NCBI RefSeq assembly: GCF_902168135.1
Contig: NZ_CABHOL010000024.1
Coordinates: 62,001-126,000 of the forward strand
DNA length: 64,000 bases
Origin: an uncultured Fluviicola sp.
GTDB lineage: Bacteria > Bacteroidota > Bacteroidia > Flavobacteriales_D > Crocinitomicaceae
Direction: 5' to 3'
This document shows positions 31,130 to 51,922 of this stretch, one piece after another (the stretch's first letter is position 1; each line of letters opens with the position of its first letter). The notes under the pieces were generated by a model. The model was given only the letters and a program-made list of their open reading frames with translations. It was not told the DNA's origin and did not search any database. The position numbers and the translations under genes are program-made.

Positions 31130-31756
31130 ATGGCAACAATTAAAAACCTGGAGCTCAAAGTAGCTCGCGGGAAAACGAAAAACCGCGCTAAAATTTCATT
31201 AAAGTTTGACGTATCATTTACTCAGGCCGAACGGGCACATAGACTTAAATTTGGTATGTATGCAGGAATCCATGAAATTGATTACTCGGAAGATTCCATA
31301 CTAGCAATCCCGAACGGTTACGAAAGCCTCAGTATTCTGAATCTGAAATATACGGTCAATAAAAGCACCAACAGTGAGGATGATTTTGTGACCTGGCTGA
31401 AACCTCAGGTTATTTATCCCAATGGCAGGGCAAAAGTAAGTTATGAAATAGAGGAGGAAATACTCGTGAAGAACAGGGATGTATCCGAAGAAACGTTTAA
31501 AGCTTTTGTTTACGTAATTCCGGAGATCTTTGCCGGTTTCGGGTGGAGTGAAAAAGCAACTATTCCAAAAGAAGCTGCACCCGTTACCACACCAACTCCG
31601 AAGTCCGAAAGTGGGACAGGAGGGAAGGATGTTTTGGTCACGGAACAAAAAACTCCTCAGCCGGAAGTCAAGCCTAAGCCCGTGGTTGCAGCTAAACCCA
31701 AAGCTGTTAAAAAAGCGGCACCGAAAACGGTGAAACCAACGCAGTCGAAAGCATAA
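31130..31756 (+). CDS. Unknown protein with Lys/Ala/Pro-rich tail
   Basis: A 208-aa protein. Residues 1-145 are a beta-rich globular part (KISLKFDVSFTQAERAHRLK, then VSYEIEEEILVKNRD), with no signal peptide. Residues 148-208 are low-complexity, Lys, Ala, Pro and Thr rich (KPKAVKKAAPKTVKPTQSKA), like a histone-H1 or polymorphic-toxin linker. It converges on the eleven-gene minus-strand cluster and shares its terminator; the globular part could be a companion of that cluster, but this rests on position only. Confidence 0.65.
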   Translation: MATIKNLELKVARGKTKNRAKISLKFDVSFTQAERAHRLKFGMYAGIHEIDYSEDSILAIPNGYESLSILNLKYTVNKSTNSEDDFVTWLKPQVIYPNGRAKVSYEIEEEILVKNRDVSEETFKAFVYVIPEIFAGFGWSEKATIPKEAAPVTTPTPKSESGTGGKDVLVTEQKTPQPEVKPKPVVAAKPKAVKKAAPKTVKPTQSKA

Positions 31757-31790
31757 AAAAAATGGGGGAAGTCAACTTCCCCCATTTTTA
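31757..31790. terminator. Bidirectional terminator between convergent genes
   Basis: AAAAATGGGGGAAGT, loop CA, ACTTCCCCCATTTTT. Perfect and symmetric, serving the 208-aa gene on one side and the eleven-gene cluster on the other. Confidence 0.92.
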
Positions 31791-31806: not shown

Positions 31807-34800
31807 TCAGATCTTGGACTTGATAGCATCGTAAACGGTTTGTCCTTCACCTTCGGTTTTGTAGGATATTTTTTCATGAACATAAATATCCGCATTGGTC
31901 AAACTCAATTCCTTCTTCAGTAAATTCACCAAATAGGCCACTGAGTCTGCCTGATCGGCAGGAACAGCATCCCAGGTTTTGGAAGATGCAGTATAAGCAC
32001 CGACTACTTCAATTCCTATGGAATCTCCATTATATGGATATCTGTCCGGGTAGGATTTACCAAGCTCATGATTATGTACTTTTTCTACCCGATCTCCATA
32101 AGAAGTCTTTCCTTCCCAGATCTTTTTAATGGCTTTGCCGTCATCTGCGGAACAGGTTTTTTCCTGTTCACATCGGGAGCGAATCTTTCCGACATGTTGT
32201 GCTTTTCTGTCTGTTCCAACCGTTTGAATGATTTCGCCGTCTTTTCCCACTACAAAGTGAGCTGCTATTCCACTTTTAAATCCGCTTACAGTACCGGATG
32301 TACTGTTGTTTTCTGTTCGGTGTAATACAATTGCAACCGGTGTTATAGCACCTTTATCGGCTTCACTTACTTTTTGGATTTTTATTTTACTGTCGGTAAA
32401 CCACCCTTTTGTAAGCGTACTTGTTCCGGCAGCTGCACCTTTCTTTGTGACAGGTATCTGAATCGTTTCATTCAAACCTGGTTCCCAGGAAGCTGATTTG
32501 CCATTTTTGGAAGCGGTCATTTCCACAAGCTCTTTTACCTGGTTTGCATTTGATTTATCAGAAGCCGGAAGCTTCCATTTACCACGAATAATGGACCACA
32601 AACTTTCTCCGGATTTCACCTTGTAAGTTTCCCAGTTATAATCCGTTGGATTTAAGCTCGCAGAACCCGGAGCGGAGGAACCTTTTTTGGTTGTCGGAAT
32701 GTAAATGGGATCGTTTAATCCGGGCTGCCACCCATCTGATTTGCCATTTCTCGCAACAGTCATCTCGGCAAGTTCTTTTACCTGCTTCACATTGGATGCA
32801 TCGGAAGCCGGAAGGTTCCATTTGCCGCGAATAATAGACCACAAGCTTTCACCGCTCTTAACCTTGTATATTTCCCAGGTGTAATCGTCCGGATTCAAAC
32901 CGAAAGCATGCAGATAGCTTTTCCCTTCAGAGATCCCGTCCGGAGAATAAATAAAACTGTTCGCCCGGGTTTTCCAGCCTTTCAGGAATTGCTCCATTTG
33001 AGGTTTCTTTTCTACCAAACGTTCGTAATATTGGATTCTTTTTGCACGGAATGCGTTAAACAGTTGTTCACCATTTACTGCATTGATTGCATCCAATGTG
33101 TCCCTATCCATAATTCCTGTTACGGGAACCGGTTTGCCCAAACTGTTCAATACACGCTGCATGGTGCGAATGGCATTCGATCCGGCATTGATATAGAAAT
33201 CAACGTATTGATAGGCAACCTGAACATCTTTTATTTCCTCACCCGATAATTTGTTCCAGTAAATCTGCTCGTAAATAAGCCCGGCTTGTTCATCAGTCAA
33301 TTTTTTCAGGTTCTCCAAAGTTGGCTCGACTGCTAAAAGTGATTCACCGTATTTTTGGAAAGTTCCGATGGTGATTCCTTTATTCGTAGCACCACCCGGA
33401 TCTGCCGGATTGTTTACAAATCCTCCTTCGTGCTTCAAAATAGTTGGTAAAAAGGCTTTGAATTTGGCGCTTTTAATATGAGGGAAAGGATCTGAAAATG
33501 ATTTAGACTTTGATAATCTCACAGTTGTTTTAAATGTTAAGAACTCGTCCTCATAATTATTGACATCTCCGTAAACACCGTTTTCAAATAAATCATATTC
33601 TGCATTTCTACGCTTGAAAAGACCTCTTAATCTTCTGCCTCCTGAAGTAACAATATCCATTTCACGGGCAGCATCAGCGAATCGTCCTGCATTAAGATGC
33701 CTTCCAAAATTCCGCGATAAAGTGTTACCAACTCCGGCATTGTATACATAACTTACTGCGGCATCAAATTGATGTTGAGTTAATGTCGGTGTGACAGAAT
33801 TATTTACTGCATTTTCGGCCCATGCCAGGTCACTTTGCAGCAAAGTTTCTGCCTGTGCTTCTGTAATTCCGCTTTGGAACCGATAGTTTCCTCTTCGGTA
33901 AGCCTCAATTTCCGTGTCTGTTAAGCGATGACCATGACCGATGGTTAGGAAACCTGTCCAGGTAGTTGGGTTTCGCACATTCGGGTTTACATCATCATAG
34001 ACATGATCACGATAGCCTTCACAACGTTTCAGGAAGTCGATACCATTTTGGCTCATGCGCAAAGGAGGATTGGCTAACCCGTCGCTATAGTAGGATTGGC
34101 CTTTACTTGTTTTGTTAGTTAGTTGGACATAAGTTGTTCCTTCTATCAAAACACCTTTTTTCACCAATGCCAGTAACTGCCCTTCGCTGTACCCGAATGT
34201 CATTTGTAAATGTGGCTTATCCACGAGGTTTTTAAAATCTCCGCCCCATTCAAAGCCCATTGCTTTACCTTCCTTTCCAATTAAGCTCCAGCGGCTTTGG
34301 TCATACCCCTTTTCATAACCGAAATACGGTTTAATTTCTACCACGTCAATAGCCAATCCGTAATTGTGATAGCTTTCTCCTGCACGTGCATTGGTTACAA
34401 TTTTTCCGGGTTTGGTTCTGCCTTGTGCATACAATTCGTCTTGTTCTTTAAAAGTACGGTATGGATTGCCTGTAACCCGCACTTTCATTCCGTGCTTGCT
34501 TTCCATCAGGTTGATATATTCCGCAACGGTTATTCGGATGTCGGGATGCAGTTCCAAAATTCTTTTATCGGTATGGGTGTCCCAGGTTTTCGGTATGCTT
34601 AAAGCCGACACACGTGCTTTTTGATAAGACAGGCTTAAAGATTGAGATCCTGACCGTGAGGTTACAATAGTTGCATTGTTCCGCACAAAACCAAGATGTC
34701 CGTGATCGTTATGTCCATTTTCTCGTGCCACATTGTTCAGATTACCACTATTTCCCTGGAAATTGAGGGTAAAACCGAATAATCGGGCAGTATCGTAAAG

Positions 34801-35427
34801 TGTCTGGTTATTTTCCTGGCTGAAATTAGGGCTGTTAAAAGCATTTGCAGCCTGGAAACTGGTTCCCTGGCGATTTAAATAGCGAAAATCAATATCTAAA
34901 CCCGAACGGTTCCCGTTGTGGCCGTGTCCTGCATGATGTGGGAAACCGGCTTGCCACGGATCCCGGCCATTGGAGGAAGACATGTCTCCAAGAGATACCG
35001 TGAACTGGTGGTCGGCGTTCAGTCGTCGCATCAAACCGAATAATGCCGCAGCGGTAACAGGAAGTAAAAAATGATCCCCCGGACCGTAAACTACACCATT
35101 ATCCGTTCCTCCGGCGTCAACAGTTCCATAACGTGCGAAACCGGTTCCTGTATCCGGAATCTGCACCAATCCGCTTGCATTGGCAACCAATGTATAGGAG
35201 GGCTGCTGGTTACCTTCGAAAAAGTAACGGTGCGTTGTATTCGTTCCGGCTGTATAAGTAATTGTCCCATTATTTGCGATCACATAATTATGAGGAGTAC
35301 CTGTCTTTGCCATCGATAAATCTGACAAGGACCTTCCATAACCTAAGTTCTGAGGCAATTTCTTTTGAGCTCGTTCAATTTCAAGTAAAACATTTCTTTT
35401 TTGACGTTTCTTTATGAAATTTTCCAT
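31807..35427 (-). CDS. Five-domain peptidoglycan hydrolase without signal peptide
   Basis: 1206 aa, last gene of the minus-strand cluster. Domains in order: a MepA-like/LAS metalloendopeptidase (about 110-250; HNGNRSGLDIDF with Asp178, HNDHGHLGF near 239-247); a VanY/M15-like peptidase (about 275-412; His354, Asp361, His406); a GH24 phage-type lysozyme (about 455-620; Glu470, GFLTIGHGH); a GH108-type muramidase with peptidoglycan-binding part (about 655-825; Glu667 in KHEGGF); two LysM-like repeats (about 852-912 and 934-993); and an N-acetylmuramoyl-alanine amidase_2 domain (about 1025-1200; His1036, His1057). These would cut both glycan and peptide bonds of murein. The N-terminus MENFIKKRQKRN is basic and not a Sec signal, so export needs another route, or the protein is a stored or injected lysin. 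Confidence 0.88.
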   Translation of the reverse strand: MENFIKKRQKRNVLLEIERAQKKLPQNLGYGRSLSDLSMAKTGTPHNYVIANNGTITYTAGTNTTHRYFFEGNQQPSYTLVANASGLVQIPDTGTGFARYGTVDAGGTDNGVVYGPGDHFLLPVTAAALFGLMRRLNADHQFTVSLGDMSSSNGRDPWQAGFPHHAGHGHNGNRSGLDIDFRYLNRQGTSFQAANAFNSPNFSQENNQTLYDTARLFGFTLNFQGNSGNLNNVARENGHNDHGHLGFVRNNATIVTSRSGSQSLSLSYQKARVSALSIPKTWDTHTDKRILELHPDIRITVAEYINLMESKHGMKVRVTGNPYRTFKEQDELYAQGRTKPGKIVTNARAGESYHNYGLAIDVVEIKPYFGYEKGYDQSRWSLIGKEGKAMGFEWGGDFKNLVDKPHLQMTFGYSEGQLLALVKKGVLIEGTTYVQLTNKTSKGQSYYSDGLANPPLRMSQNGIDFLKRCEGYRDHVYDDVNPNVRNPTTWTGFLTIGHGHRLTDTEIEAYRRGNYRFQSGITEAQAETLLQSDLAWAENAVNNSVTPTLTQHQFDAAVSYVYNAGVGNTLSRNFGRHLNAGRFADAAREMDIVTSGGRRLRGLFKRRNAEYDLFENGVYGDVNNYEDEFLTFKTTVRLSKSKSFSDPFPHIKSAKFKAFLPTILKHEGGFVNNPADPGGATNKGITIGTFQKYGESLLAVEPTLENLKKLTDEQAGLIYEQIYWNKLSGEEIKDVQVAYQYVDFYINAGSNAIRTMQRVLNSLGKPVPVTGIMDRDTLDAINAVNGEQLFNAFRAKRIQYYERLVEKKPQMEQFLKGWKTRANSFIYSPDGISEGKSYLHAFGLNPDDYTWEIYKVKSGESLWSIIRGKWNLPASDASNVKQVKELAEMTVARNGKSDGWQPGLNDPIYIPTTKKGSSAPGSASLNPTDYNWETYKVKSGESLWSIIRGKWKLPASDKSNANQVKELVEMTASKNGKSASWEPGLNETIQIPVTKKGAAAGTSTLTKGWFTDSKIKIQKVSEADKGAITPVAIVLHRTENNSTSGTVSGFKSGIAAHFVVGKDGEIIQTVGTDRKAQHVGKIRSRCEQEKTCSADDGKAIKKIWEGKTSYGDRVEKVHNHELGKSYPDRYPYNGDSIGIEVVGAYTASSKTWDAVPADQADSVAYLVNLLKKELSLTNADIYVHEKISYKTEGEGQTVYDAIKSKI

Positions 35428-35457
35428 AATCTGAGTTTTATTAATTGTGAGTAGTGA

Positions 35458-36009
35458 TTAATCTATTTGAAGGGTTTCAACAGCAATAAATTCAAGCTGT
35501 TTGGACTGCAGCAGCTGTTTTTCAGAAGGCAGATGCAAACGATGCAAAACACTGTTGACCGGTTTTTCGTTGAGTATTTTCTTCCATTCGGTATTTCCCT
35601 GACTTTCGTACGGCAAAATCGGCAGTTCGAATGCTCCGTCCTGACCTGCAACCAAAACCCTTGCTTTTGCTTGTGACAAACTATTTTTTACATCCATCGG
35701 ATACGATACCATTAAAACAAAAGAACCTTTGCTGTCTGTTTTAGCTAAATCCACAACCGGTTTTACAGATACTCGTTTGTTTTGAACAAAGATTCCATCC
35801 AATTGCACGGACATTCGCGGAAGCGGGGTTTGTGATCCGTTGCGCACCAATTGTCCGACAATAAGCAGGTAAGCCGAAGTGGTATTTTCTCTGGATACCA
35901 TTACCGGAAGTGAAGGTTGTTTTAATCCGCTTCCGTTGATCTGAAAACCCTCTTTTTGAGGCAGACTGAATCGCTGTACCCGGCTTTGAAGTTTCAGGAG
36001 TCTATTCAT
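35458..36009 (-). CDS. Unknown cluster protein (beta-rich, 183 aa)
   Basis: Its ATG overlaps the TGA of the upstream gene (ATGA), so the two are translationally coupled. The protein is beta-rich; a central segment LLIVGQLVRNGSQTPLPRMSVQLDG and TDSKGSFVLMVSYPMD resembles the carboxypeptidase-regulatory/transthyretin-like fold that carries cargo or links domains. No signal peptide. Ends 30 bases before the giant hydrolase. Possible adaptor between the cluster and the hydrolase; inference from position. Confidence 0.68.
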   Translation of the reverse strand: MNRLLKLQSRVQRFSLPQKEGFQINGSGLKQPSLPVMVSRENTTSAYLLIVGQLVRNGSQTPLPRMSVQLDGIFVQNKRVSVKPVVDLAKTDSKGSFVLMVSYPMDVKNSLSQAKARVLVAGQDGAFELPILPYESQGNTEWKKILNEKPVNSVLHRLHLPSEKQLLQSKQLEFIAVETLQID

Positions 36010-36977
36010 AATTCAGCTGATTCAGTTGTTTCCTCTTCTTCGACGATTTCGGCATCTTCATAGGCATCCCGTGTTTGGCTGCTTCTTCCGTTATCCGGAC
36101 TTGATTCGGCCAATGATTCCATATACTCAAAATCTTCAGCCAATTCCATACCATCCAGAGTCATAGCAGCTTCAGTTACGACTTCTTCCAATTTTTGTTT
36201 TTTAGCCGTATTCTCATTCAACAAGTCGGCATCTGCACGATCAAAAATTTCTTCCAGGTGTACTTCACCTAATTGGAATGTTTGAAGACGGTTCATATCA
36301 AGCGCCAATTGTTCGAAAATAGCTTCGTCTTTCACCATTTTTTCTTCAACCTGTTGCGAAGCATTTTCAGCTGCCGGTTTGGCTTTCTCTTCTTTTAGAT
36401 AGTCTTGATCAGCATATTCGGATAATTGCGCCAGGCTTTTCTTGCCTGAGAGCACGGCTTGTAAATCACGCGCAAACTGATCGTTGAATTCTTCGTCCTC
36501 GTCGGCTGAGTTATTTCCTGAATGCGAGTCTTCATTTTCGAATAAATGGTCATCAACCTGGAAAACATCCGAGAATGGATTGTTTCGATCTTCCGGTTCC
36601 TCTTTTGAGTTATTTGAATAATGAATATCATCATCATGATCGTCATCATAGGCTTTGGCAGTCGCATAGTTCTCTTCATCCGAACCATCATAATCATAAG
36701 CTTTTGCCATTACCATTTCTTCCTGGTCTTCACCGGAATCCTCAAAATATACAGGATCATTTTGGTCGTCATCTTCATCTGCTTCAAATGCCTGATGCGT
36801 ATAATCGAAAGCATGAGATTGGATGCTCATTCCATGGTGATAGGACCGCTGGCTTTGCTTCTGGTCATTTTCGGTTACAATTAAGCCATCTTTAAACATC
36901 AATTTTATTGGTTTTTTATGATCATAATGGGCTTTTGAAGCTCTTTTATGCATTAATTTCTTAAATTCAGGTACCAT
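36006..36977 (-). CDS. Highly acidic unknown cluster protein
   Basis: 323 aa with a basic opening (MVPEFKKLMHKRASKAHYDH) and a very acidic middle (residues 60-170), including AKAYDYDGSDEENY repeated as AKAYDDDHDDD. Two helical motifs follow: NDQFARDLQAVLSGKKSL (about 164-181) and EAIFEQLALDMNRLQTFQLG (about 222-241) with VHLEEIFDRADADL after it. From memory, a similar pair (a short D(M)QAxLxGKK helix, then IFDxIAQxM...LGxVxLExRF) occurs in Bacteroidota proteins associated with eCIS-type or polymorphic-toxin loci, but I could not check this. No enzyme motif or signal peptide. Confidence 0.65.
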   Translation of the reverse strand: MVPEFKKLMHKRASKAHYDHKKPIKLMFKDGLIVTENDQKQSQRSYHHGMSIQSHAFDYTHQAFEADEDDDQNDPVYFEDSGEDQEEMVMAKAYDYDGSDEENYATAKAYDDDHDDDIHYSNNSKEEPEDRNNPFSDVFQVDDHLFENEDSHSGNNSADEDEEFNDQFARDLQAVLSGKKSLAQLSEYADQDYLKEEKAKPAAENASQQVEEKMVKDEAIFEQLALDMNRLQTFQLGEVHLEEIFDRADADLLNENTAKKQKLEEVVTEAAMTLDGMELAEDFEYMESLAESSPDNGRSSQTRDAYEDAEIVEEEETTESAEL

Positions 36978-37002
36978 AATTTTTTTGTTTTTTTATACCA
37001 GC

Positions 37003-37767
37003 TCATCTGGGTTTAGCAGTAACATTGAGGTTAAAAACCGTATGTTCATCCAGTTGAACAATCAACTGATTATCCTTTTTCGATGGTAATTCGGCCAATT
37101 CCAACACGATTTGATCTGCGCCGGCTTGAATAACTCTTGCTTCCTTGCTATTTAGCAATGCTTTGAGCTGATCCGAATTTTTAATGACGAGATTTTCCCC
37201 TTTGATTGCCAGGACATTTTTTCCCTGAACAGTTGCCAATTGAGCGGCAAATACTTTGGGAGGCTTCTGTCCCCGTTGAGCTTTATTAATTAAACCTGCT
37301 AATTTTTTAAAATCAATGGTGTTTCCGGTTCCTTCATTGGAAGCTCCGGGTTTGCTCACCTTGATATTTTGATTTTGGATTTTTTCGACCTCTTTGGCAG
37401 ATCTTATTCCCATTCTGTTCAATTGAAGTTTCGTTTCCGGATCGATCTCTTCGATTTCATCCAGAGCAATATCGTCTGCTTCAATGGGTTTTTTAGCTGT
37501 TTCACGAATCTGACGATCTGTTATTGAACCCAACGACAGACTGATTTTAGAAGAACCTGATTCCCCCGAACCGGCTGTAACAAAGCGAACGTCTTTTCCA
37601 TTGTATTCCGGAAATACATGCAGTTCCATTGAAACATCTTTTACAGCATAGGTTAGCGGACTGCTCAATCCCTTGATGGAAAGCGTTTCACGAGCCTTAT
37701 CGAGCTCGTAAACCAGAGAATCGATAAAATCCTCTAATTGCCAGGATTTATTATTCTTGTTCGCCAT
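37003..37767 (-). CDS. Trypco2-like domain protein
   Basis: 254 aa. The N-terminal 80 residues (FIDSLVYELDKARETL..., then VKDVSMELHVFPEYNGKDVR, FVTAGSGES, KISLSLGSI) follow the layout of the trypsin-co-occurring domain 2: a helix, a strand reading xExELxV, a variable loop and a final KxxLxL strand. The middle has a helix-hairpin-helix-like ETKLQLNRMGIRSAKEVEKI, and the C-terminal 80 residues form a separate beta domain. Trypco domains were described beside peptidases in predicted conflict systems; here the nearby peptidase is a subtilase. It overlaps the gene before it by 17 bases. Family call is by eye. Confidence 0.6.
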   Translation of the reverse strand: MANKNNKSWQLEDFIDSLVYELDKARETLSIKGLSSPLTYAVKDVSMELHVFPEYNGKDVRFVTAGSGESGSSKISLSLGSITDRQIRETAKKPIEADDIALDEIEEIDPETKLQLNRMGIRSAKEVEKIQNQNIKVSKPGASNEGTGNTIDFKKLAGLINKAQRGQKPPKVFAAQLATVQGKNVLAIKGENLVIKNSDQLKALLNSKEARVIQAGADQIVLELAELPSKKDNQLIVQLDEHTVFNLNVTAKPR

Positions 37768-38056
37768 TGAGATCTTCTAGTCTTACAATCGTTAATTTCA
37801 AATTCTGTATCGTCGGCATAAAACTCGTTTCAATATGTTGAGTCGGAGGAGCCGAACCTAGTGTAATTGTGTTGTCATCATTCACCAAAACATCTATTTC
37901 CAAAGGAAGATCAACCAAAATCCTGTCAACCTTCAATGTTTCCCAAAAATCAGATTCCGGGGCAGCATGAGTGATGGCCGACAATGATTCTATCAGTACC
38001 GAAAAGGGTTGAAGCTTTTCGTCAATCTGGTCATATATCTTATCCGTTGTTTTCAA
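37751..38056 (-). CDS. Unknown cluster protein (101 aa)
   Basis: A small mixed alpha/beta protein: KIYDQIDEKLQPFSVLIESL helix, then beta strands DLPLEIDVLVNDDNTITLG and a terminal IQNLKLTIVRLEDLNGE. No signal peptide. It overlaps its neighbours by 17 bases on each side, so three genes in a row share overlapping ends and should be made in a fixed ratio. Function unknown. Confidence 0.7.
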   Translation of the reverse strand: MKTTDKIYDQIDEKLQPFSVLIESLSAITHAAPESDFWETLKVDRILVDLPLEIDVLVNDDNTITLGSAPPTQHIETSFMPTIQNLKLTIVRLEDLNGEQE

Positions 38057-38213
38057 CTTTTTTTGATGAAATTTTGTAATCGATATCTACAGGAGTTGCG
38101 GTTACTTTTTTGTCAAAAATCACCTTCAATCCATCCAGCAATACGGTAGCGTCCTCTGTGCTGAATGCGCCGGAAAAAGACTGCGATGTCGGGAATAATG
38201 TTTGCTCTTTCAT
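38040..38213 (-). CDS. Very small cluster protein (57 aa)
   Basis: ATG at 38213, TAA at 38040, reading MKEQTLFPTSQSFSGAFSTE and then DATVLLDGLKVIFDKKVTAT with a basic tail KISSKKVENNG. It starts 5 bases after the stop of the 614-aa gene and overlaps the next gene by 17 bases, which fills an otherwise empty gap in a tightly packed cluster. The balance of residues and overlap pattern support a real gene. No known family. Confidence 0.65.
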   Translation of the reverse strand: MKEQTLFPTSQSFSGAFSTEDATVLLDGLKVIFDKKVTATPVDIDYKISSKKVENNG

Positions 38214-38218
38214 AGTTA

Positions 38219-40063
38219 CTAATTAGAGGTTACACCTATAAAATGTGCTGAGGCGACAGCGGGGAAGTAAACCATTTCTTCCACCGTGTTTTCAATATTT
38301 CCATACTGATTTACAGCTCCCTGCTTTTGCAGGTAAACTTCTGTTGCCTGAACTTCCGGATATACCCAAAGTGCAGCCATTTCGCCGGCTTTTCCTTTAT
38401 ATTCAAGACCTGTCCTTGATGCTTTTTGCTGATTGACAATAAAATCTTCCGCTTCCACTGCAGCCAGCTGCTGATCGTTAAGCATTGGAAATTGCCCGAT
38501 TGCGGGAAGCAACTGATTCAGTACGGTAGGACTGAGTATCAATCCGGATTTCATTTTGCCTTCCATTTTTCGGGGTCTTGCGGGAGACATCAGCTCAATG
38601 GTTTCCATTTGGGCATTTCTGGTCCTTCCGTGTTCCAATGCAAAATAATACTTGCATTCAAACTCATAACGTACTATGTCTTCTGTAAAATCAGACTGCC
38701 ATACTTTATGCCAAAACGCCCGGTATTTATTGATGTCATTCAGTGGAACAGCTTCTTTGGATGCTCCGATTCTATCATAGAAATAACCCGAAGAAACCAT
38801 GATCGGAAGATCCATGGAAGTCCCCAGCTTTTCACCGTTCTTCCCGCGCCAAAGTACTGCAATGTATACCTTGTATAGTTCACCCGGGATTAAATCATCC
38901 GCCAAATGGGCTGGTATTTCAGGTACAACAGACAAGACTCCCAGGTTTGATCCGTTATGCTCCAAACGGTGCTGGATCAGTGTCTCGCCGCTTTCCCGTC
39001 TTACGATCAATTGAACCATTCCTTTAGGAATATCTTTCGGTGCGTTGATCTTTAAAGGAAATCCCATAGCCCTGCCATATGAAAAGCAAAAACACGACTG
39101 ATTTTTAAAGGGCAGGGGAGTTAATCCGTCGATTTTCAAACTGGCCAGAGTGCTGGTTTTGAATTTAACAGAAGGAAAAGGATACGTTTTTACTCCCATT
39201 TGGTTCAAAAGCCCCTGTACATCTTTATCTTCGACACCAGGATTGAATTTTGCCATTGCGTCCAGTTCGTCTTTGTTGATCTGTGCACCAATGGTTCCCA
39301 ATTTTTGTAATCCGTCGGTAATGGCAGAAATCAGGGTCATAATTGTCATCGGGTCCATCATGGCTCCCGACCACTTATTTGACCGGGCATAACTTTTACC
39401 TTCACTTTTGGTTTCCTGGCCGGACGGGGTCAGTAATCCTTTCAGCAAATCCAACACCTTTTGCAGTTGTTCGGGATCGCTGATCAGTTTTAATAGTTGG
39501 TCCTGCATACCGGTTTTCCCTCCGCCTTTTTGATCCGGTTTCGATTTTCCACCGAGTAGACCTCCAATCATAGGAAGTGCTTTGGGTAAAAACTCCATCA
39601 ATTTGTCCAAAAACAAGGCATTCGAAACGGGCTTTTCTTTGTATTGAAAAGCAACACTTCCAACAGTTTTTTCAAGTGCAGCCGGTGGAGTAGTACGTGC
39701 CGAAAAGGAAACCGAATTTTGCATGGGAGGGATATTTGTTAAACCGGGAATTACACGGACAATAGATGAAATAGCAATTCCATTCTCATCTTTGTCTTTG
39801 TATGAATACAACTGCACATAGGCATGTTCGCGAGTAATTAAATTTGCAGGAATCTCGAAGTGTATTCTACCGAAAGATGAATCCGGAATAGGTCCGTACA
39901 GCGGACTTGCGAACTTTTGATCCTTCATGAAAGGAACACCATAACGGCTGAATGTCTCGGCACCGCCAACAATGATCCGGAAATAACGGTTCTTACCAAT
40001 ATTCCCGGAAAACTGCTGATTGTTCCCGGAATTAACATCGTATTTTAAGATAGCAAGTGCCAT
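38219..40063 (-). CDS. Unknown cluster protein (614 aa)
   Basis: No signal peptide. Residues 1-130 are beta-rich (RYFRIIVGGAETFSRYGVPF; FGRIHFEIPANLITREHAYV). Residues 150-260 hold a Gly/Lys-rich hinge (LLGGKSKPDQKGGGKTG) between helices LPKALPMIGG and DQLLKLISDPEQLQKVLDLL. Residues 300-500 are again beta-rich, with a CFCF pair (QSCFCFSYGRAM), and a final part ends in EEMVYFPAVASAHFIGVTSN. Repeated beta domains and a flexible middle would suit a structural or scaffold protein. Starts 9 bases after the 347-aa gene. No homology recognised. Confidence 0.7.
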   Translation of the reverse strand: MALAILKYDVNSGNNQQFSGNIGKNRYFRIIVGGAETFSRYGVPFMKDQKFASPLYGPIPDSSFGRIHFEIPANLITREHAYVQLYSYKDKDENGIAISSIVRVIPGLTNIPPMQNSVSFSARTTPPAALEKTVGSVAFQYKEKPVSNALFLDKLMEFLPKALPMIGGLLGGKSKPDQKGGGKTGMQDQLLKLISDPEQLQKVLDLLKGLLTPSGQETKSEGKSYARSNKWSGAMMDPMTIMTLISAITDGLQKLGTIGAQINKDELDAMAKFNPGVEDKDVQGLLNQMGVKTYPFPSVKFKTSTLASLKIDGLTPLPFKNQSCFCFSYGRAMGFPLKINAPKDIPKGMVQLIVRRESGETLIQHRLEHNGSNLGVLSVVPEIPAHLADDLIPGELYKVYIAVLWRGKNGEKLGTSMDLPIMVSSGYFYDRIGASKEAVPLNDINKYRAFWHKVWQSDFTEDIVRYEFECKYYFALEHGRTRNAQMETIELMSPARPRKMEGKMKSGLILSPTVLNQLLPAIGQFPMLNDQQLAAVEAEDFIVNQQKASRTGLEYKGKAGEMAALWVYPEVQATEVYLQKQGAVNQYGNIENTVEEMVYFPAVASAHFIGVTSN

Positions 40064-40072
40064 AATAATCTA

Positions 40073-41116
40073 TTATTTTCCTGTTCCGTTTGGTCCTCCT
40101 GCAGGATTTGAACGATTCGGATTAGTAGCTATTTCAGTATCACTCTCAATTTTGTAGAGATCCACAAACTTATCCAGCTTGAAATAATCTGTTGAAAACT
40201 GGAGTTCTACGTTTCCCGTTAACTTTGCTGCCAATTCATCATTCATGGAACTTTTTGCAGACGAAACGCTCACCGATGTTGATTGTCTGGAGTTACTGGT
40301 ACCACCGGAAGGACCGCCAAATATCGAACCGATTAATCCACCGCTCGCCTTCATGTGGCTTCCTCCGGATGAACTGTTCTTGTTCATCGCCTTGTCCTGG
40401 AATGCAGCATCAGTTTTGGATTTGAAGTCGAATACAACACCTGCTTTAATCGTTCCTTTATCGATAACCATCCGTGTAACTCCGGCTAAAACAATTTGTT
40501 GAAGTGTTTTTCTGTGCTCTTTTGCCATTCTAAGCTTGGCGTCCATAATGGCAGCTTTGACTTCATTGTCCTCCATATCGACAGGTTCGCCTTCCTTGCT
40601 CGTCAATTTGGCACCCTCATCATCAAAGGATAAATTAAAATTGTCATTGGAATTGGCTAATTCGCCGAAAGCGTCTTCATCACTCACTTGTTTGACAAAT
40701 TGAGCCACCGACTTGGATGCTTCTTTCATCAAACGGATGTAACTTTCGGTTTGTTCCTTCATTACGGCCATATTTGCGTCAAACACACCCTTCACAAGGT
40801 CTTTTACGAATAACGGAAAATCGACCGTATCAACCAACTCGTCAAAAGCTTCAACACCTCTTCCGATTTCATGTTTATGTCGGCTGTCTTTGATCAAATC
40901 ACTGGCTCTGTCAGCCGTCTGAGATCCTCTCAATTTATCAATAAACCCATTGGCCTGCTGTTCAGTCAACCGTTTGGCATTGGCCAGTACCATGTCTTTG
41001 TACATAGACATTTGATCAGGTCTGGACATCACTTGAAATGCACTGCTCCTACTAAGGACTTCTTTTGCTTCGGAGCGCGCAAGATTTTTTATTTCTTCAG
41101 GAGTTAACTCTGGCAT
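40073..41116 (-). CDS. Unknown cluster protein (347 aa, helical then beta)
   Basis: Residues 1-150 are helical (PEEIKNLARSEAKEVLSRSS; a long amphipathic DLVKGVFDANMAVMKEQTES). Residues 185-240 contain LQQIVLAGVTRMVIDKGTIK and AGVVFDFKSKTD, reading as two beta strands. Then comes a Ser/Gly-rich flexible stretch, and a strand-rich end NVELQFSTDYFKLDKFVDLY. No signal peptide, no enzyme motif. The helix-linker-strand order recalls a membrane-active or assembly protein but nothing definite can be said. Confidence 0.7.
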   Translation of the reverse strand: MPELTPEEIKNLARSEAKEVLSRSSAFQVMSRPDQMSMYKDMVLANAKRLTEQQANGFIDKLRGSQTADRASDLIKDSRHKHEIGRGVEAFDELVDTVDFPLFVKDLVKGVFDANMAVMKEQTESYIRLMKEASKSVAQFVKQVSDEDAFGELANSNDNFNLSFDDEGAKLTSKEGEPVDMEDNEVKAAIMDAKLRMAKEHRKTLQQIVLAGVTRMVIDKGTIKAGVVFDFKSKTDAAFQDKAMNKNSSSGGSHMKASGGLIGSIFGGPSGGTSNSRQSTSVSVSSAKSSMNDELAAKLTGNVELQFSTDYFKLDKFVDLYKIESDTEIATNPNRSNPAGGPNGTGK

Positions 41117-41171
41117 AATTGAATATTTTAAGTTTAATACTTGAACAAATCATAGATTGGTGTGATAAAAA

Positions 41172-42722
41172 TTAATTATCCCAATCTTCAAATTCTTCTT
41201 CAACTGCTGCCAATTCACCTCTTGTGATTCCGCTGTTACCTGTCGTGCTTCCTTCCTGGCTCAGGGCAATGATGTATGACTCTGCCGATTGAATGAAACC
41301 GATAAACTGGTTGTTGTCGAATGCTGCATCGCTGAAATTGGAAACATACTGGAACAATTTGTAACCTTCAACCGCTGCAGTTTTGTACGCCGTAATGTTC
41401 GGTGCGGAACCGTAAGTTTCTTTGTGTAATACATCAATAACAGACCAAACGTTCTTGCTTCTTCCCGGAGCAATTTGATTGATAATTCCATCGTCTGCCA
41501 GAATTTCCATGGCGTCTTGCAAATGGTTGTACATTTCAGTAGCCTGAACATGAGCCATTCCCGTAAAGAACGATGTCAGGTTGTATTGAATTTCACGGAT
41601 CAACTGTGTGATAGGCAAACGAGAAACAAAATCACGATTATTGGATGTTTCCGTTTTAGTAATGTATTCCACAATCTGATGCATTAATTCAGACCACAAG
41701 CGTGAGAACGATTCATTGACAATTGTTCCCTCCAATAAATTGGCATCACTCAAATTAAGTACGCGCTTGAACAACATGCTTCGTTCATCGTTATTCGCTC
41801 TTTCTTCAAGCAGCTTGTAGAAACGGTACAATTTTCCTTCGGTCGCAGGGTCAGAAACATATACGTTACCACGGGCCCACTTCAATATCAGGGCTTCTGC
41901 CAGGTTAAAACACTGAAGCTGCTCCCCAAGTACATAAGTATAGTACAATGCACCGGCACCTAAAATATTTCTGGGAACAATTCCTTGTTTTGCAGAACTT
42001 TCAAAAAGGTCCACGGAAAAATCCCAGGTATTCTGACTTCCCTTAATGCGATACAGATCAATAGGATCCACACCGCCGCTTTCAACACGCAATGCATAAT
42101 CCAATGCCAATGCAAAATATTCATCAAATGAATGGTTGGTAACGGCAGCATCCAATCCGGCGATCGTTTGTGGAATAGACAATTTCATCGAGCTCATATA
42201 ATCAACCATCGCATTGATTATCTTGTCGTTGAATTGATTCGGATCAACATCTCCCGAATAGGTAATGTACTGGCGCACAAAATAATTGATTGGCCCTAAT
42301 TCTTTTACCTTGTAGTAAATGGCAACGATAATGTCCGCTGATTCACCGTTTGAAATTGGTACGTTAGACTGCAGTACCACGCTCAGCATCATTTCAGTAA
42401 TCTGATCAGCTAAATCAGCATCTGCCGGTAAACTGATTCCTCTTAAAGTCAATACTTCATCAATCAGTTCTCTGTAGAAATCCTGAACCAGTTTCTGCAG
42501 ACTGCGCATACAAGCCTGGTAGATTCCGTTTACATCCGTGTTATTTACATTTTCCACAAAAAATGCATAATCCAAACAGGTAGCATATAAAGCTGGAACA
42601 GAAATGATTTTTCGTTCAACCGCCGATAAATTAGCGTTATTAATTAAGCTGTTTACCTGATTGATAACGCCTGTTAATCCATTATCATTGATATGCTGGC
42701 GTACTTTGTCTTCAATATTCAT
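41172..42722 (-). CDS. Unknown all-helical cluster protein (516 aa)
   Basis: Predominantly helical throughout with evenly spaced aromatic residues (VPALYATCLDYAFFVENVNN; GAGALYYTYVLGEQLQCFNL; IREIQYNLTSFFTGMAHVQA). It has an acidic end EEEFEDWDN. No signal peptide, coiled-coil heptads are weak, and there is no nucleotide-binding motif. It may form a repeat solenoid or a shell-like subunit. Gaps of about 50 bases on both sides are the largest within the cluster. Confidence 0.7.
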   Translation of the reverse strand: MNIEDKVRQHINDNGLTGVINQVNSLINNANLSAVERKIISVPALYATCLDYAFFVENVNNTDVNGIYQACMRSLQKLVQDFYRELIDEVLTLRGISLPADADLADQITEMMLSVVLQSNVPISNGESADIIVAIYYKVKELGPINYFVRQYITYSGDVDPNQFNDKIINAMVDYMSSMKLSIPQTIAGLDAAVTNHSFDEYFALALDYALRVESGGVDPIDLYRIKGSQNTWDFSVDLFESSAKQGIVPRNILGAGALYYTYVLGEQLQCFNLAEALILKWARGNVYVSDPATEGKLYRFYKLLEERANNDERSMLFKRVLNLSDANLLEGTIVNESFSRLWSELMHQIVEYITKTETSNNRDFVSRLPITQLIREIQYNLTSFFTGMAHVQATEMYNHLQDAMEILADDGIINQIAPGRSKNVWSVIDVLHKETYGSAPNITAYKTAAVEGYKLFQYVSNFSDAAFDNNQFIGFIQSAESYIIALSQEGSTTGNSGITRGELAAVEEEFEDWDN

Positions 42723-42769
42723 TTTAATAATTTTAAAGTTGAATTACAGATTGTTTTTATTTAACCGGT

Positions 42770-43012
42770 TTATTTTGATGGAGTTGGATTCGGGGTCGGA
42801 GCTTTAATGACAAGGGTGTTTGCCTTGTACTTGTCCATTAGTTTTTGCATCGCCTGCACCGCAATTTTGTCCATTACGATATCTATCCCGTTCAATTTTA
42901 AGATATTCATTGAAGGTAAGTTAATGGATAACTGATTGGGGAATGCTGCACTGATAGAGGGCGTAAAACTTGTTGAAACCAGATCAAACTGGGAAAGATT
43001 AATTGTGTTCAT
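42770..43012 (-). CDS. Unknown cluster protein (80 aa)
   Basis: 80 aa: MNTINLSQFDLVSTSFTPSI, two short hydrophobic helices or strands (INLPSMNILKLNGIDIVM), a KIAVQAMQKLMDKY helix and a Pro/Thr tail (APTPNPTPSK). It starts 6 bases after the subtilase stop. Size and position fit a chaperone, immunity or inhibitor partner of the protease, but no such family is recognised. Confidence 0.65.
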   Translation of the reverse strand: MNTINLSQFDLVSTSFTPSISAAFPNQLSINLPSMNILKLNGIDIVMDKIAVQAMQKLMDKYKANTLVIKAPTPNPTPSK

Positions 43013-43018
43013 ACGTAT

Positions 43019-44326
43019 TTAATTTATGTTTAGTTTATATTTTACCATTTGCAGGGCATCCTCCAGGTTCAGCATTCCATAGCCTGCTTTCATGTCTTTG
43101 AAACTTTTTCCCAGCTTATCGGAACTGTGTTTAAGGATGTATTTTACTTGTTGATCGTTTAATGATTTTCCCTTTTGTTTCGCATAAGATTTTAGCAAGG
43201 CAATACCGCCGGTAACAAAAGGTGTTGAATGAGATGTTCCACTCGAAAAGGCATATTTTCCCTCAATGTGGGTGCTGAAAATATCTGTTCCAGGAGCAAC
43301 GAAATCTACCTGGTCGCCAAAAGTTGAAAAGGCCGCAGCTCCCATCATTTCTTTATCTAATGCACCCACTCCAATGACATGTGGGAGGGAAGAAGGGTAA
43401 TATTTGGCGTTCTGGCCGTCATTTCCTGTTGCCGCAACAATGGTAACTCCTTTGTCTTTGGCATACTTTACGATTTCTTCGTGCGGCAGACCACCGCCTT
43501 CATGCACAATTCCAAGGCTCATATTGATAACCTGTGCACCCTGATCGACAGCCCATTTGATCCCGGAATTGATATTGTCGATCAGACCTGCACCAACGCG
43601 GTCTTCACCTCGTTTCATTGCGCCCAGTACTCTTACCGGAAGTATTTTGCAGTGGGGTACAACCCCGGGAGACATGTGGATTCCTTTGGCACCAATGATC
43701 CCGGCAACATGTGTTCCATGTCCCACTTCATCGTCAGGATCGGTATCATAGCCGAGGAAATCCCCGATAAATTCATTTGCTCCGGAAATAATATCCACAA
43801 AATCATAACCCGGTAAAAGGCAGTGTTGTAATTCCGGATGTTTCAGCTGGATTCCCGTATCCAAAACAGCAATTATCACCGAAGGGTCGCCCAAAGTTTC
43901 TTTCGCCACTTTATCCAGTCCGATCGATTTGCGTACATGGTCATACCGGTATGAATCCTTCTTTCCCAGAGACAAGGTTAATGCGGGAAGAGGTGTGCTT
44001 GCGATTCCGCCCACCTGAACGGATTCAATTTCAGGAAGTAATTCTAAACGGTTTATCAGAGAAGTTGGAATCCGGGTATCTTCTGAGAGAATGAACCTGT
44101 AAAACCGGTTTAACTCCGCTTTGATTTCATCTTCAGACCAAACCTCGTTCTTTTTAGGATATTCGGAAGTAACAACGTAGCCAAGATTATATTCTCTGAA
44201 CACCTCTTCAACATTTGCTGAAAAGGATGAGTTCGCCCTTGCTTTTCCTAAGGCAACATCTCCCCAAAATGGGATATAGGGTAAATTAAAAGACGTAGTA
44301 GTCTTTAGAACTAAATGTGGTTTCAT
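43019..44326 (-). CDS. Subtilase (S8) without signal peptide
   Basis: A 435-aa serine protease and first gene of the cluster. The catalytic set is complete: Asp156 (AVLDTGIQLKHPEL), His203 (GHGTHVAG), oxyanion Asn in AATGNDG (about 302) and Ser365 (SGTSHSTPFVTGG). Residues 1-130 would be the propeptide-like or N-terminal domain (FREYNLGYVVTSEYPKKNEV). There is no Sec signal, unlike most extracellular subtilases, so it acts in the cytoplasm or leaves by another route. Intracellular subtilases mature proteins or degrade targets on demand; beside a trypco2-like gene it may be the effector or processing protease of this cluster. Confidence 0.9.
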   Translation of the reverse strand: MKPHLVLKTTTSFNLPYIPFWGDVALGKARANSSFSANVEEVFREYNLGYVVTSEYPKKNEVWSEDEIKAELNRFYRFILSEDTRIPTSLINRLELLPEIESVQVGGIASTPLPALTLSLGKKDSYRYDHVRKSIGLDKVAKETLGDPSVIIAVLDTGIQLKHPELQHCLLPGYDFVDIISGANEFIGDFLGYDTDPDDEVGHGTHVAGIIGAKGIHMSPGVVPHCKILPVRVLGAMKRGEDRVGAGLIDNINSGIKWAVDQGAQVINMSLGIVHEGGGLPHEEIVKYAKDKGVTIVAATGNDGQNAKYYPSSLPHVIGVGALDKEMMGAAAFSTFGDQVDFVAPGTDIFSTHIEGKYAFSSGTSHSTPFVTGGIALLKSYAKQKGKSLNDQQVKYILKHSSDKLGKSFKDMKAGYGMLNLEDALQMVKYKLNIN

Positions 44327-44364: not shown

Positions 44365-44393
44365 CAATAATAGAAAAAATATTTGGATTCAAA
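44365..44393 (-). promoter_or_regulatory. Putative promoter of the eleven-gene cluster
   Basis: On the minus strand, TTTG, 17 bases, then TATTATTG (one mismatch to TAnnTTTG), about 40 bases before the subtilase start. It is the best match in the upstream region. Confidence 0.4.
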
Positions 44394-44802: not shown

Positions 44803-45219
44803 ATGAAGCGAATAATTTCACTGATAGTAATGGTCTTATACCTTGTTCCGGCATTTGGAATAACGGTATCTGTGCATTATTGCGGTGGAAAATTAGCAGA
44901 CGTTTCCGTTCTGGTACCAAACAAAAACAAGCCTTGTGCCTGCAGCGTTCCGGCCGAAAAAAACGAAACCATTGTTAGCGGAAAGTGTTGTGAGCAGCTT
45001 GTCTTTTCCCTCAAACTTGAAAATCAACAGCTCAAGGCATCAACAGTAAGTTGGAAATCCCTTGAAGTTGTACCTTTCAAAAGTGAACCTTTTGTTTTTG
45101 TGCCCAAAAATGAAAGGGTTGTTTCTACCGGTAAACAGCGCTCTGACTATCATCCTAATCGGCCGCCGGGCAGATTCAATGAACCCATCTACATTCAAAA
45201 CGAATCATTCCTGATATAG
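44803..45219 (+). CDS. HYC_CC_PP family protein
   Basis: 138 aa with a signal peptide (to about residue 19). The defining motifs are His25-Tyr-Cys27-GGK, Cys62-Cys63 in GKCCEQLVF, and PP in HPNRPPGRF near 120. Additional Cys residues in PCACSVP make a likely metal site. The family is typical of Bacteroidota and is commonly next to copper or heavy-metal genes, as here. Its molecular role is unknown; periplasmic metal binding is plausible. Confidence 0.85.
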   Translation: MKRIISLIVMVLYLVPAFGITVSVHYCGGKLADVSVLVPNKNKPCACSVPAEKNETIVSGKCCEQLVFSLKLENQQLKASTVSWKSLEVVPFKSEPFVFVPKNERVVSTGKQRSDYHPNRPPGRFNEPIYIQNESFLI

Positions 45220-45306
45220 AATTACCTCTTTTCAGACCGCCTTTTCACAAGGCTGAACTAATCCGTTTGTGGATTAGAAATTCGTTATTCATCAAAAAAA
45301 GAAATT

Positions 45307-46155
45307 ATGAAAAAGATACAGCACCTCATGTTGGGAATGCTCTTGTTAGTAGCATTTACCAGCTGTGCATCACCGATTAAAAATGCAAAAACGGAAATCC
45401 TTAAAGTAGCCGGAAATTGCGAAATGTGCAAAAAAACAATTGAAACTGCAGCTAATAGGAAAGGGATTTCTTCCGCTGAATGGAACAAAGATTCCAAAAT
45501 ACTCACCCTGCAATACGATGCTGAGAAAACAACTTCGGATGAGGTGTTGAAACGCATTGCCTACGCAGGTTATGACAATGAGAAATTCCTGGCACCCGAT
45601 GATGCTTATGCGAAGCTGGCAGAATGTTGTAAATACGAGCGCATGAAGAAAGATGTCGTAGTAAAAGAGCCGGTTGCGAAAGTGGAAAATACCACCGCGT
45701 CCGCACAAGAGCAAGCTGCAGAAACCAACCTGCTGGAAAAAGTTTACACGGCCTATTTCGCGTTGAAAGATGCTTTGGTTAAAGACAACGAGGCGGCGGC
45801 TTCAGCAAAGTCAACAGATTTGGCAAAAGCAATTAAAGCAGTTGATATGTCTAAAATGAGCGCTCCGGAACACACGGTTTGGATGAAAGTTGAAAAAGAC
45901 CTATTGATGCATGCCGGGCGTATCGGAGAGGCGAAGGATATCAATTCCCAACGCGAACATTTTTCATTGCTTTCGAAAGAAATGTATGACCTGGTGAAAG
46001 TTTTCAAAGCAGATCAAACAATGTACCTGCAGCATTGTCCCATGTACAATGATGGCGCCGGAGCAGATTGGCTGAGTCTTGAAAACGCAGTGAAAAATCC
46101 GTATTACGGCAGTTCCATGCTCACTTGTGGTAAAACAACCGAAACCATTAAGTAA
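45307..46155 (+). CDS. Lipoprotein with HMA and DUF3347 domains
   Basis: 282 aa. A lipobox gives lipidated Cys20 (AFTSC). Residues 30-95 form a heavy-metal-associated domain with the GNCEMC pair at 38 and 41 (CxxC). Residues 140-275 are the DUF3347 domain, with the closing signature YLQHCPMYNDGAGADWLSLE and NPYYGSSMLTCG. DUF3347 occurs in CusB-like efflux adaptors and stand-alone copper-binding proteins. A CTAATCC/GGATTAG hairpin lies in its leader. It probably captures copper in the periplasm. The next gene begins 3 bases after it. Confidence 0.88.
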   Translation: MKKIQHLMLGMLLLVAFTSCASPIKNAKTEILKVAGNCEMCKKTIETAANRKGISSAEWNKDSKILTLQYDAEKTTSDEVLKRIAYAGYDNEKFLAPDDAYAKLAECCKYERMKKDVVVKEPVAKVENTTASAQEQAAETNLLEKVYTAYFALKDALVKDNEAAASAKSTDLAKAIKAVDMSKMSAPEHTVWMKVEKDLLMHAGRIGEAKDINSQREHFSLLSKEMYDLVKVFKADQTMYLQHCPMYNDGAGADWLSLENAVKNPYYGSSMLTCGKTTETIK

Positions 46156-46158
46156 CAG

Positions 46159-46719: not shown

Positions 46720-46721
46720 AT

Positions 46722-46751
46722 GTTATAACTCAATCAGAAAATATCATAAGT
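46722..46751 (+). promoter_or_regulatory. Candidate operator before copA
   Basis: GTTATAACT, 12 bases, then ATCATAAGT; the two half-sites start 21 bases apart. A second copy is at 49231-49260. Exactly 20 bases after the second half-site comes the -7-like GAACTTTG (46772-46779). Confidence 0.6.
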
Positions 46752-46789
46752 CTTTTCCTGCGTTTCCTTCTGAACTTTGTAGCATATAA

Positions 46790-49228: not shown

Positions 49229-49230
49229 AA

Positions 49231-49260
49231 ATCATAAATCGTTCGGAAAAAATCATAAGT
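49231..49260 (+). promoter_or_regulatory. Candidate operator before copZ-like gene
   Basis: ATCATAAAT, 12 bases, then ATCATAAGT, again with 21-base spacing. The linker resembles that of the copA copy (C-TTCGGAAAA against C-ATCAGAAAA). Twenty bases on is AATCTTTG (49281-49288). Confidence 0.6.
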
Positions 49261-49311
49261 ATAAAGCCCCTGAGAAAGCGAATCTTTGCAGGGTATTAAA
49301 AGTAAATAATC

Positions 49312-49527: not shown

Positions 49528-49587
49528 TAGGAAGTTTATGCTCCTTCTGTGAGGTGAAAAAGGTAGTAATGATGTAAATTGATAGTA

Positions 49588-51807: not shown

Positions 51808-51831
51808 ATGCTCCTTCCGGAAAATTTGACA

Positions 51832-51890: not shown

Positions 51891-51914
51891 ACATACACTC
51901 TCTTTCATCTTTAC

Positions 51915-51922
51915 TATCTTTG
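51915..51922 (+). promoter_or_regulatory. Promoter -7 box
   Basis: TATCTTTG, 43 bases before the ATG at 51965. Confidence 0.5.

What the first reader, a model, noticed from the sequence alone, without database searches (positions are those of the whole stretch)
31807..44326. Eleven-gene cluster: cytoplasmic subtilase, unknown proteins and a five-domain lysin
Seen directly: eleven minus-strand genes with short gaps or overlaps of 4 and 17 bases, one best promoter match at 44365-44393 and one shared bidirectional terminator at 31757. None has a recognisable signal peptide, although the first is a subtilase and the last carries five murein-cutting domains. Known families: S8, LAS/M15 peptidases, GH24, GH108, LysM, amidase_2. 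The trypco2 call is by eye. Eight members match nothing I know. Inference: an assembly, stored lysin or conflict system whose cytoplasmically made lytic protein is released or delivered without Sec. I saw no sheath, tube or AAA ATPase genes, so it is not a standard contractile injection system.
Basis: partly seen in the sequence, partly recalled or inferred. Interest (0 to 1): 0.88.

Follow-up and report, generated by a model that had tools for sequence, protein, structure and literature searches.

The report
Modular lysin-cargo operon with protease core
This eleven-gene cluster is one copy of a rare, apparently undescribed module, with relatives in cyanobacteria and Burkholderia, in which a conserved protease-containing core of unknown proteins sits beside exchangeable proteins, many of them cell-wall-cutting, most of which in the Bacteroidota copies share a short start sequence, so it may be a new way for bacteria to load and release wall-cutting toxins.

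Summary
In detail: eleven minus-strand genes (31807-44326), first a signal-less subtilase, last a multi-domain murein hydrolase. The block subtilase-g3-g4-g5-g6-g7-g8 recurs in order in three further Bacteroidota lineages and on a Tolypothrix plasmid, and rearranged, without g5, on a Burkholderia pyrrocinia plasmid. g3, g4 and g5 have only chance-level family matches. The module is rare (g4 in 3 of 395 class and 3 of 14 genus genomes, own included) and under purifying selection. Behind the core the cargo is swapped: lysin; DUF4347 protein plus Tae4 amidase (a T6SS-effector type); DUF4347 protein; or GH24 lysozyme plus M23 peptidase. Nine Bacteroidota cargo proteins of five body types start with a shared amphipathic leader (about N-R-L-x-x-L-Q-x-E-L), recovered in leave-one-locus-out tests. 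Best reading: a Sec-independent antibacterial effector module whose core recognises the leader, with the protease maturing or releasing cargo; export and target are inferred. Main rival: an accessory of an eCIS elsewhere in the genome, whose sheath gene is in 5 of 6 cluster genomes against 58 of 384 other class genomes. The g4 structure model was poor; g5 was never accepted for folding.

The parts
43019..44326 (-). g1: S8 subtilase, 435 aa, no signal peptide; triad D156/H203/S365 in invariant DTG/GHGTH/GTS motifs; conserved N-terminal region that looks like an I9-type prodomain (by eye, recalled)
   Evidence: Pfam PF00082 1.2e-46; alignment of window, L011, L013; best NCBIfam model T7SS mycosin, below its cut-off
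42770..43012 (-). g2: 80 aa, unknown; found only in the two same-genus loci examined; dN/dS 0.198 against G008
41172..42722 (-). g3: 516 aa acidic core protein without a named family; whole in L013 and L021, split in two in L019, relatives in L025 and L026
40073..41116 (-). g4: 347 aa core protein without a named family; relatives in all loci examined, four in the Burkholderia locus
38219..40063 (-). g5: 614 aa core protein without a named family, beginning MALAxxKY in Bacteroidota; middle region rich in glycine and hydrophobic residues; no relative found in L026
38040..38213 (-). g6: 57 aa, conserved small protein (about INGMKVLFDEKVxLMPVxL in L013 and L021), similar to the C-terminal part of one Tolypothrix protein
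37751..38056 (-). g7: 101 aa (TTG start), conserved small acidic protein
37003..37767 (-). g8: 254 aa; weak Trypco2-like N-terminal part, weak helix-hairpin-helix-like middle, weak TIG-like C-terminal part; adaptor role inferred
36006..36977 (-). g9: 323 aa, very acidic (pI 4.2); an acidic protein takes a like place in L011, L013, L019, L021; weak shared motif
35458..36009 (-). g10: 183 aa, cargo leader MNRLLKLQSRVQR plus a domain homologous to L013 g10-like proteins, which in turn match the modules joined to Tae4 in L021
31807..35427 (-). g11: 1206 aa cargo lysin: weak leader (RNVLLEIERAQKK), M15/VanY, GH24, GH108 + PG_binding_3, LysM, Amidase_2; N-terminal LAS-like region unproven
31758..31789 (-). 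terminator hairpin between the cluster and the convergent gene
31130..31756 (+). convergent 208 aa gene, no Pfam match at E 0.05, kept beside the cluster in G008 (74.8% identity); possible accessory gene

Best explanation
The cluster is one copy of a mobile effector-loading module. Shown by sequence: (1) a conserved core (S8 protease, g3, g4, g5, small g6 and g7, adaptor-like g8) keeps its order over large divergence in Bacteroidota and Cyanobacteriota; (2) downstream of it, in Bacteroidota, lies exchangeable cargo, mostly peptidoglycan hydrolases and DUF4347 proteins, most with a shared N-terminal amphipathic leader; (3) none of the window's proteins has a Sec signal or a clear membrane segment by hydropathy. 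Inferred: the core proteins form a soluble cytoplasmic complex; the leader helix docks cargo to it, perhaps through g8 and the acidic g9; the subtilase, a likely zymogen, trims the leader or a core part so that cargo is held until release; the loaded complex leaves by lysis or by an unknown route, and the cargo cuts the peptidoglycan of other bacteria. The release step and the target are the weakest steps.
For: Order g1-g3-g4-g5-g6-g7-g8 in four Bacteroidota lineages: window genus, Roseivirga thermotolerans (L013), uncultured Flavobacteriaceae (L019), G611 (L021), and on the Tolypothrix plasmid. Subtilase, g3, four g4, g8 and a weak g7 (E 0.022) with a 1254-aa Amidase_2 protein on a Burkholderia pyrrocinia plasmid. 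Swapped cargo with Tae4 (2.5e-15), DUF4347, GH24, M23; the Tae4 part aligns to Serratia Ssp1, sharing the cysteine that is C50 there (4bi4 is the C50A mutant). Leader: with each locus held out, 9 of 9 seed cargo proteins outscore all 101 background N-termini; among 506 ORFs of the own genome, with window leaders left out of training, g10 ranks 2 and g11 ranks 3. A peptidoglycan hydrolase is in 4 of 6 independent loci and a PG_binding_1 protein in a fifth. dN/dS 0.04-0.20 for all eleven genes. DUF4347 occurs in PA0256, called a putative antibacterial T6SS toxin (PMC8262886, one passage seen). In L021 a protein with a signal-peptide-like start follows the Tae4 gene, 126 bases on, same strand: a candidate immunity gene (no Pfam match).
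Against: No usable structure and no experiment. The g4 model is too poor (pLDDT 47.4, pTM 0.29) and g5 could not be run. No recognised energy source, channel or contractile part is in the cluster. The leader is weak on the window lysin (10.8; next ORF 10.2) and one unrelated ORF scores above both window leaders (17.6); core g4 of the window also exceeds background in the held-out test (8.9 against 5.6). Seeds were picked by eye. The L019 M23 protein and the 23 Tolypothrix and Burkholderia proteins tested do not stand out from background. Charge pairing of acidic g9 with basic cargo holds in the window (pI 4.2 against 9.8 and 9.1) but the DUF4347 cargos are acidic (pI 5.5, 5.4). I noticed no immunity gene in the window, L013 or L019 (by eye). 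Roseivirga cargo has no peptidoglycan enzyme found by Pfam.
Confidence: 0.45

Rival explanations
1. Accessory effector module of an extracellular contractile injection system (eCIS) encoded elsewhere in the same genome: the core is a chaperone/adaptor complex, and the leader is the signal that loads cargo into that particle.
For: A sheath gene like the own genome's (L035:7819-9366; beside it a Phage_base_V spike/hub gene, and tube-, LysM- and baseplate-like genes by eye) is in 5 of 6 cluster genomes. In the class sample 61 of 387 genomes have it, 3 of them cluster genomes, so 58 of 384 others. By lineage 3 of 4, about p 0.012 by hand arithmetic, post hoc. eCIS cargo is loaded by N-terminal signals (PMC11495950, abstract and outline seen).
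Against: Genus-mate G007 has the sheath but no g4; G1066 (L019's genome, completeness not given) has the cluster and no sheath hit. No profile of g1, g3, g4, g5, g7 or g8 hits ORFs of three sheath loci and no ORF there has the leader. 88% of known eCIS toxins lie within ten genes of the operon (PMC11297309, passages); here the sheath is on another contig in 4 genomes (in G000 the cluster is over 90 kb from either contig end) and about 465 kb away in G358.
Confidence: 0.2
2. Self-lysis or abortive defence system: a trigger activates the subtilase, which frees stored murein hydrolases that kill the producing cell, stopping a phage or releasing goods.
For: Cytoplasmic protease plus lysins without signals; weak Trypco2 similarity, a domain of predicted conflict systems; PADLOC subtilase and IetS hits on g1; a CHAT gene (L013) or weak C13-like gene (L021) and weakly ECF-sigma-like genes near the cluster.
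Against: PADLOC hits are generic S8 similarity; no NTPase, sensor or holin was recognised; Tae4 and DUF4347 are effector-type domains used against other cells; exchangeable cargo with a shared leader fits delivery better than suicide.
Confidence: 0.2
3. A storage compartment or peptidoglycan-remodelling complex used in the normal life of the cell (growth, spreading, secreted enzymes).
For: Peptidoglycan hydrolases in 4 of 6 independent loci and a peptidoglycan-binding protein in a fifth; no toxin activity shown.
Against: Rare and patchy (3 of 14 genus genomes; 2 of 395 phylum genomes), on plasmids in two other phyla, variable cargo; not expected of a housekeeping complex.
Confidence: 0.1

Closest known systems
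Extracellular contractile injection systems (eCIS, e.g. PVC, Afp, AlgoCIS)
   Same: Cytoplasmic cargo without Sec signal, N-terminal loading signal, exchangeable toxins
   Different: No sheath, tube, spike or AAA ATPase recognised in the cluster; core profiles do not hit ORFs of three sheath loci
Type VI secretion effectors (Tae4/Ssp1, DUF4347 protein PA0256)
   Same: Cargo domains Tae4 and DUF4347
   Different: No PF05943 (TssC/VipB) match in 6 of 6 cluster genomes at E 0.001 (two genomes are incomplete or of unknown completeness, and a diverged Bacteroidota sheath could be missed); Tae4 is joined to a different leader and Ig-like module
Trypco2 / VMAP-MoxR-vWA conflict systems (Kaur et al. 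2020, PMC7159879, passages seen)
   Same: Weak Trypco2-like N-terminal part of g8; peptidase in the operon
   Different: No trypsin, MoxR ATPase or vWA match in the cluster; Trypco2 below the Pfam cut-off
Mycosins (T7SS) and PatA/PatG leader proteases
   Same: g1 matches both S8 models (4.1e-56 and 3.6e-30)
   Different: Both scores are below the models' cut-offs; T7SS or cyanobactin partners were not looked for beyond the cluster
Phage endolysin cassettes
   Same: GH24, GH108, M15, Amidase_2 domains match endolysin or amidase PHROGs
   Different: No phage structural or holin match among the ten proteins scanned; g4 not found in phage records; g5, g8 and g4 not found in viral contigs by pattern scans

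Membership tests
eCIS | Sheath, tube, spike and AAA ATPase in the locus | tested here: not met
   Pfam and PHROG scans of ten of the eleven window proteins; six core profiles against ORFs of three sheath loci. A separate eCIS lies at G000:C48
eCIS | Cargo physically loaded in the particle | not testable with these tools
   needs particle purification
T6SS | TssB/TssC sheath and membrane complex | tested here: not met
   PF05943 in 0 of 6 genomes; TssB and the membrane complex were not searched, and a diverged sheath could be missed
Trypco2 conflict system | Trypco2 domain over Pfam cut-off | tested here: inconclusive
   2 of 7 members, best E 0.0098; own genome has no match over the cut-off
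Trypco2 conflict system | Trypsin, MoxR and vWA genes in the cluster | tested here: not met
   Pfam scan of ten of eleven cluster proteins
Tae4 amidase (L021 cargo) | Tae4 match with catalytic Cys and His | tested here: met
   Pfam PF14113 2.5e-15; Ssp1 alignment shares the Cys (C50A mutant in PDB) and the His of GHID (role of the His recalled)
S8 subtilase (g1) | Asp-His-Ser triad | tested here: met
   Motifs invariant in window, L011 and L013
Encapsulin / phage-capsid compartment | HK97-type shell protein | tested here: inconclusive
   No significant Pfam or PHROG match for g3-g5, but no usable fold model
Holin-endolysin (T10SS-like) cassette | Holin or other membrane protein beside the lysin | tested here: not met
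   No 19-mer of mean hydropathy above 1.36 in the eleven proteins; no holin PHROG among ten scanned

The most novel reading that the evidence does not exclude
A new class of toxin-delivery particle, unrelated to phage tails: a self-assembling, protease-matured protein complex, spread across at least three phyla, that recognises a short N-terminal leader and carries wall-cutting toxins to other bacteria without Sec, sheath or a recognised motor.
Probability: 0.35. Interest if true: 0.93.

Novelty: categorically new. Interest (0 to 1): 0.8.

Why it matters
If true, bacteria have another, simpler way to arm and release wall-cutting toxins, with a short tag that could be tested on any protein. It would also give functions to several protein families that the libraries used here do not name, and an explanation for rare toxin genes found far from any T6SS or eCIS locus.

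Tried and rejected
Phage or prophage origin: no relative of g5, g8 or g4 found in viral contigs (three pattern scans), none of g4 in phage records. T6SS elsewhere in the genome: PF05943 in 0 of 6. g7 as a paralogue of g8: hhalign gives no support. A motif shared by the acidic g9-like proteins and cargo: the held-out site is found at the expected place in the four acidic proteins, but 0, 1, 2 and 9 of 300 own shuffles equal it and an unrelated protein (L021 g3) outscores it in two of the four tests; in the L013 cargo it is not found. An M15-like start of the L013 DUF4347 protein, seen by eye: not supported. Remote relatives of g4, g5, g8 in the PDB: none significant (RNA polymerase alpha at E 0.023 for the middle of g8). 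Fold search was not run because the only model had pLDDT 47. Foreign base composition: none (42.0% against 41.5% G+C). Literature: ten searches (open-licence PMC papers only) listed nothing that I recognised as this module; five papers were opened, four for passages and one for abstract and outline. Subscription journals and preprints were not covered.
Full report
What is there. Eleven minus-strand genes lie at 31807-44326 with spacings from -17 to 55 bases and end at a 14-pair terminator shared with a convergent gene. I call them g1 (subtilase) to g11 (lysin). Its promoter is no better than chance. Four of its five murein-cutting domains are supported; the fifth has no Pfam match at E 10 and lacks the usual first metal motif.

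It is a system, not a chance neighbourhood. Within the genus, 3 of 14 genomes, own included, carry g4. In Roseivirga thermotolerans (L013), an uncultured Flavobacteriaceae (L019) and genome G611 (L021), g1, g3, g4, g5, g6, g7 and g8 stand in the same order; where measured, identity to the window is 24-50%. Profiles built without L019 and L021 find g1, g3, g4, g5, g7 and g8 in both, with E-values from 3e-178 to 1e-13. In L019 g3 is split in two ORFs. A tblastn of g4 against 72,556 plasmid records hits four records from two sources: three near-identical Tolypothrix-type plasmids, with g1, g3, g4, g5, g7, g8 and a g6-like tail in order, and Burkholderia pyrrocinia pBPJTT, with subtilase, g3, four g4-like genes, g8, a weak g7 and no g5. 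The annotation calls the unknown ones hypothetical protein. In wider samples, own genome included, the module is rare: g5 in 2 of 395 phylum genomes, g4 in 3 of 395 class genomes, g8 in 2 of 349 order genomes and 2 of 395 phylum genomes. One genome-contig scan with g4 returned four loci, all in Bacteroidota; that scan relies on short conserved peptides and did not reach the cyanobacterial or Burkholderia relatives. All eleven genes are under purifying selection between the window and G008 (dN/dS 0.04-0.20).

Cargo is exchangeable. Downstream of g8 the window has an acidic protein, g10 and a lysin. Roseivirga has a DUF4347 protein, an acidic protein and two g10-like genes. G611 has a DUF4347 protein, an acidic protein and a 520-aa protein made of two g10-like modules and a Tae4 amidase. 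L019 has an acidic protein, an unknown 203-aa protein, a GH24 lysozyme and an M23 peptidase. In Tolypothrix a PG_binding_1 protein sits between the subtilase and g3; in Burkholderia a 1254-aa protein with Amidase_2, C70 and C92 domains precedes g4. Roseivirga is the one of six loci without a recognised peptidoglycan domain. Tae4 is a T6SS effector family, and DUF4347 occurs in a putative T6SS toxin.

A shared leader. By eye, cargo proteins begin with a 13-residue amphipathic stretch, about x-N-R-L-x-x-L-Q-x-E-L-x-x. Seeds were chosen by eye, so I held out each locus in turn: 9 of 9 seeds beat all 101 background N-termini; so did two acidic proteins and one core protein (window g4, 8.9 against 5.6). 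The L019 M23 protein did not, nor did any of the 23 Tolypothrix and Burkholderia proteins tested. Over 359 ORFs of eight loci, three of them sheath loci, thirteen cluster proteins score 22.5 or more and the next 8.3; eleven of the thirteen were training sequences and two are their G008 orthologues. Over 506 ORFs in about 382 kb of the own genome, with the window's leaders left out of training, g10 ranks second and g11 third; an unrelated ORF ranks first. Because g10-like proteins and the front of the Tae4 protein are homologous, I count five body types with the leader: g10/Tae4, lysin, DUF4347, the 203-aa protein and GH24. The leader is strong outside the window and on g10, weak on the window lysin.

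Mechanism. Shown: conserved core, exchangeable cargo, shared leader, no Sec signals and no clear membrane segment in the window proteins. Inferred: the leader docks cargo to a core complex; the subtilase, with a likely prodomain (by eye) and nearest to mycosin and PatA/PatG models, trims it; the loaded complex or its cargo leaves by lysis or an unknown route and attacks the wall of other cells. In G611 a protein with a signal-peptide-like start follows the Tae4 gene and could be its immunity protein (by eye; no Pfam match). Charge pairing between g9 and cargo holds in the window but not for the acidic DUF4347 cargos.

The eCIS question. The own genome holds an eCIS on contig C48. A matching sheath is in 5 of 6 cluster genomes. 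In the class sample it is in 61 of 387 genomes, three of which carry the cluster. By lineage this is 3 of 4, suggestive but post hoc. Against a tight link: G007 has the sheath without g4, G1066 the reverse, core profiles do not match ORFs of three sheath loci, and no ORF there has the leader. I keep it as the main rival.

Comparison. g3, g4, g5 and g7 match no known family beyond chance-level scores in Pfam, PHROGs, PADLOC or NCBIfam; g6 was not scanned, and g9-g11 were not scanned against NCBIfam. g8 has weak Trypco2, helix-hairpin-helix and TIG signals. Ten literature searches in open-licence PMC papers listed no description that I recognised. I rate the kind as categorically new, with the caution that fold-level kinship with known particles was not testable: the g4 model was poor and the g5 job was never accepted.

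Noticed in passing
window 59067-60020 +: 317-aa protein with an eCIS-effector-like start (DNRPEALIQRKIQEAADNSPQ, resemblance recalled) and a Pfam Stv domain (3.6e-6); possible cargo of the eCIS on contig C48.
   Followed up: partly
L035 (own genome C48) 6539-13724: Part of an eCIS locus: sheath and spike/hub by tools, tube-, LysM- and baseplate-like genes by eye, near the contig end.
   Followed up: partly
L013 16615-19822 and L021 15730-18533: Weakly ECF-sigma-like genes and TPR-like genes (by eye) near the subtilase in both loci, with a CHAT protein (L013) or a weak C13-like peptidase gene (L021); may control the cluster.
   Followed up: partly
L026 13848-25753: The Burkholderia locus carries four diverged g4-like genes and a second partial g3-like gene, as if the core had been multiplied.
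   Followed up: no
L011 7746-9779: g5 of G008 carries an extra copy of a segment of about 60 residues in its middle region, absent from the window copy (by eye).
   Followed up: no
window 31130-31756 +: Convergent 208-aa gene with no Pfam match, kept beside the cluster in G008; possible accessory or immunity gene.
   Followed up: partly
window 44803-53198 +: Genes that look like heavy-metal (copper-type) handling directly upstream of the cluster: HMA-like proteins, a P-type ATPase and a multicopper oxidase (by eye).
   Followed up: no
L021 1776-2645 -: 289-aa protein with a signal-peptide-like start followed by Q, 126 bases behind the Tae4 cargo gene on the same strand; candidate immunity protein.
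   Followed up: partly
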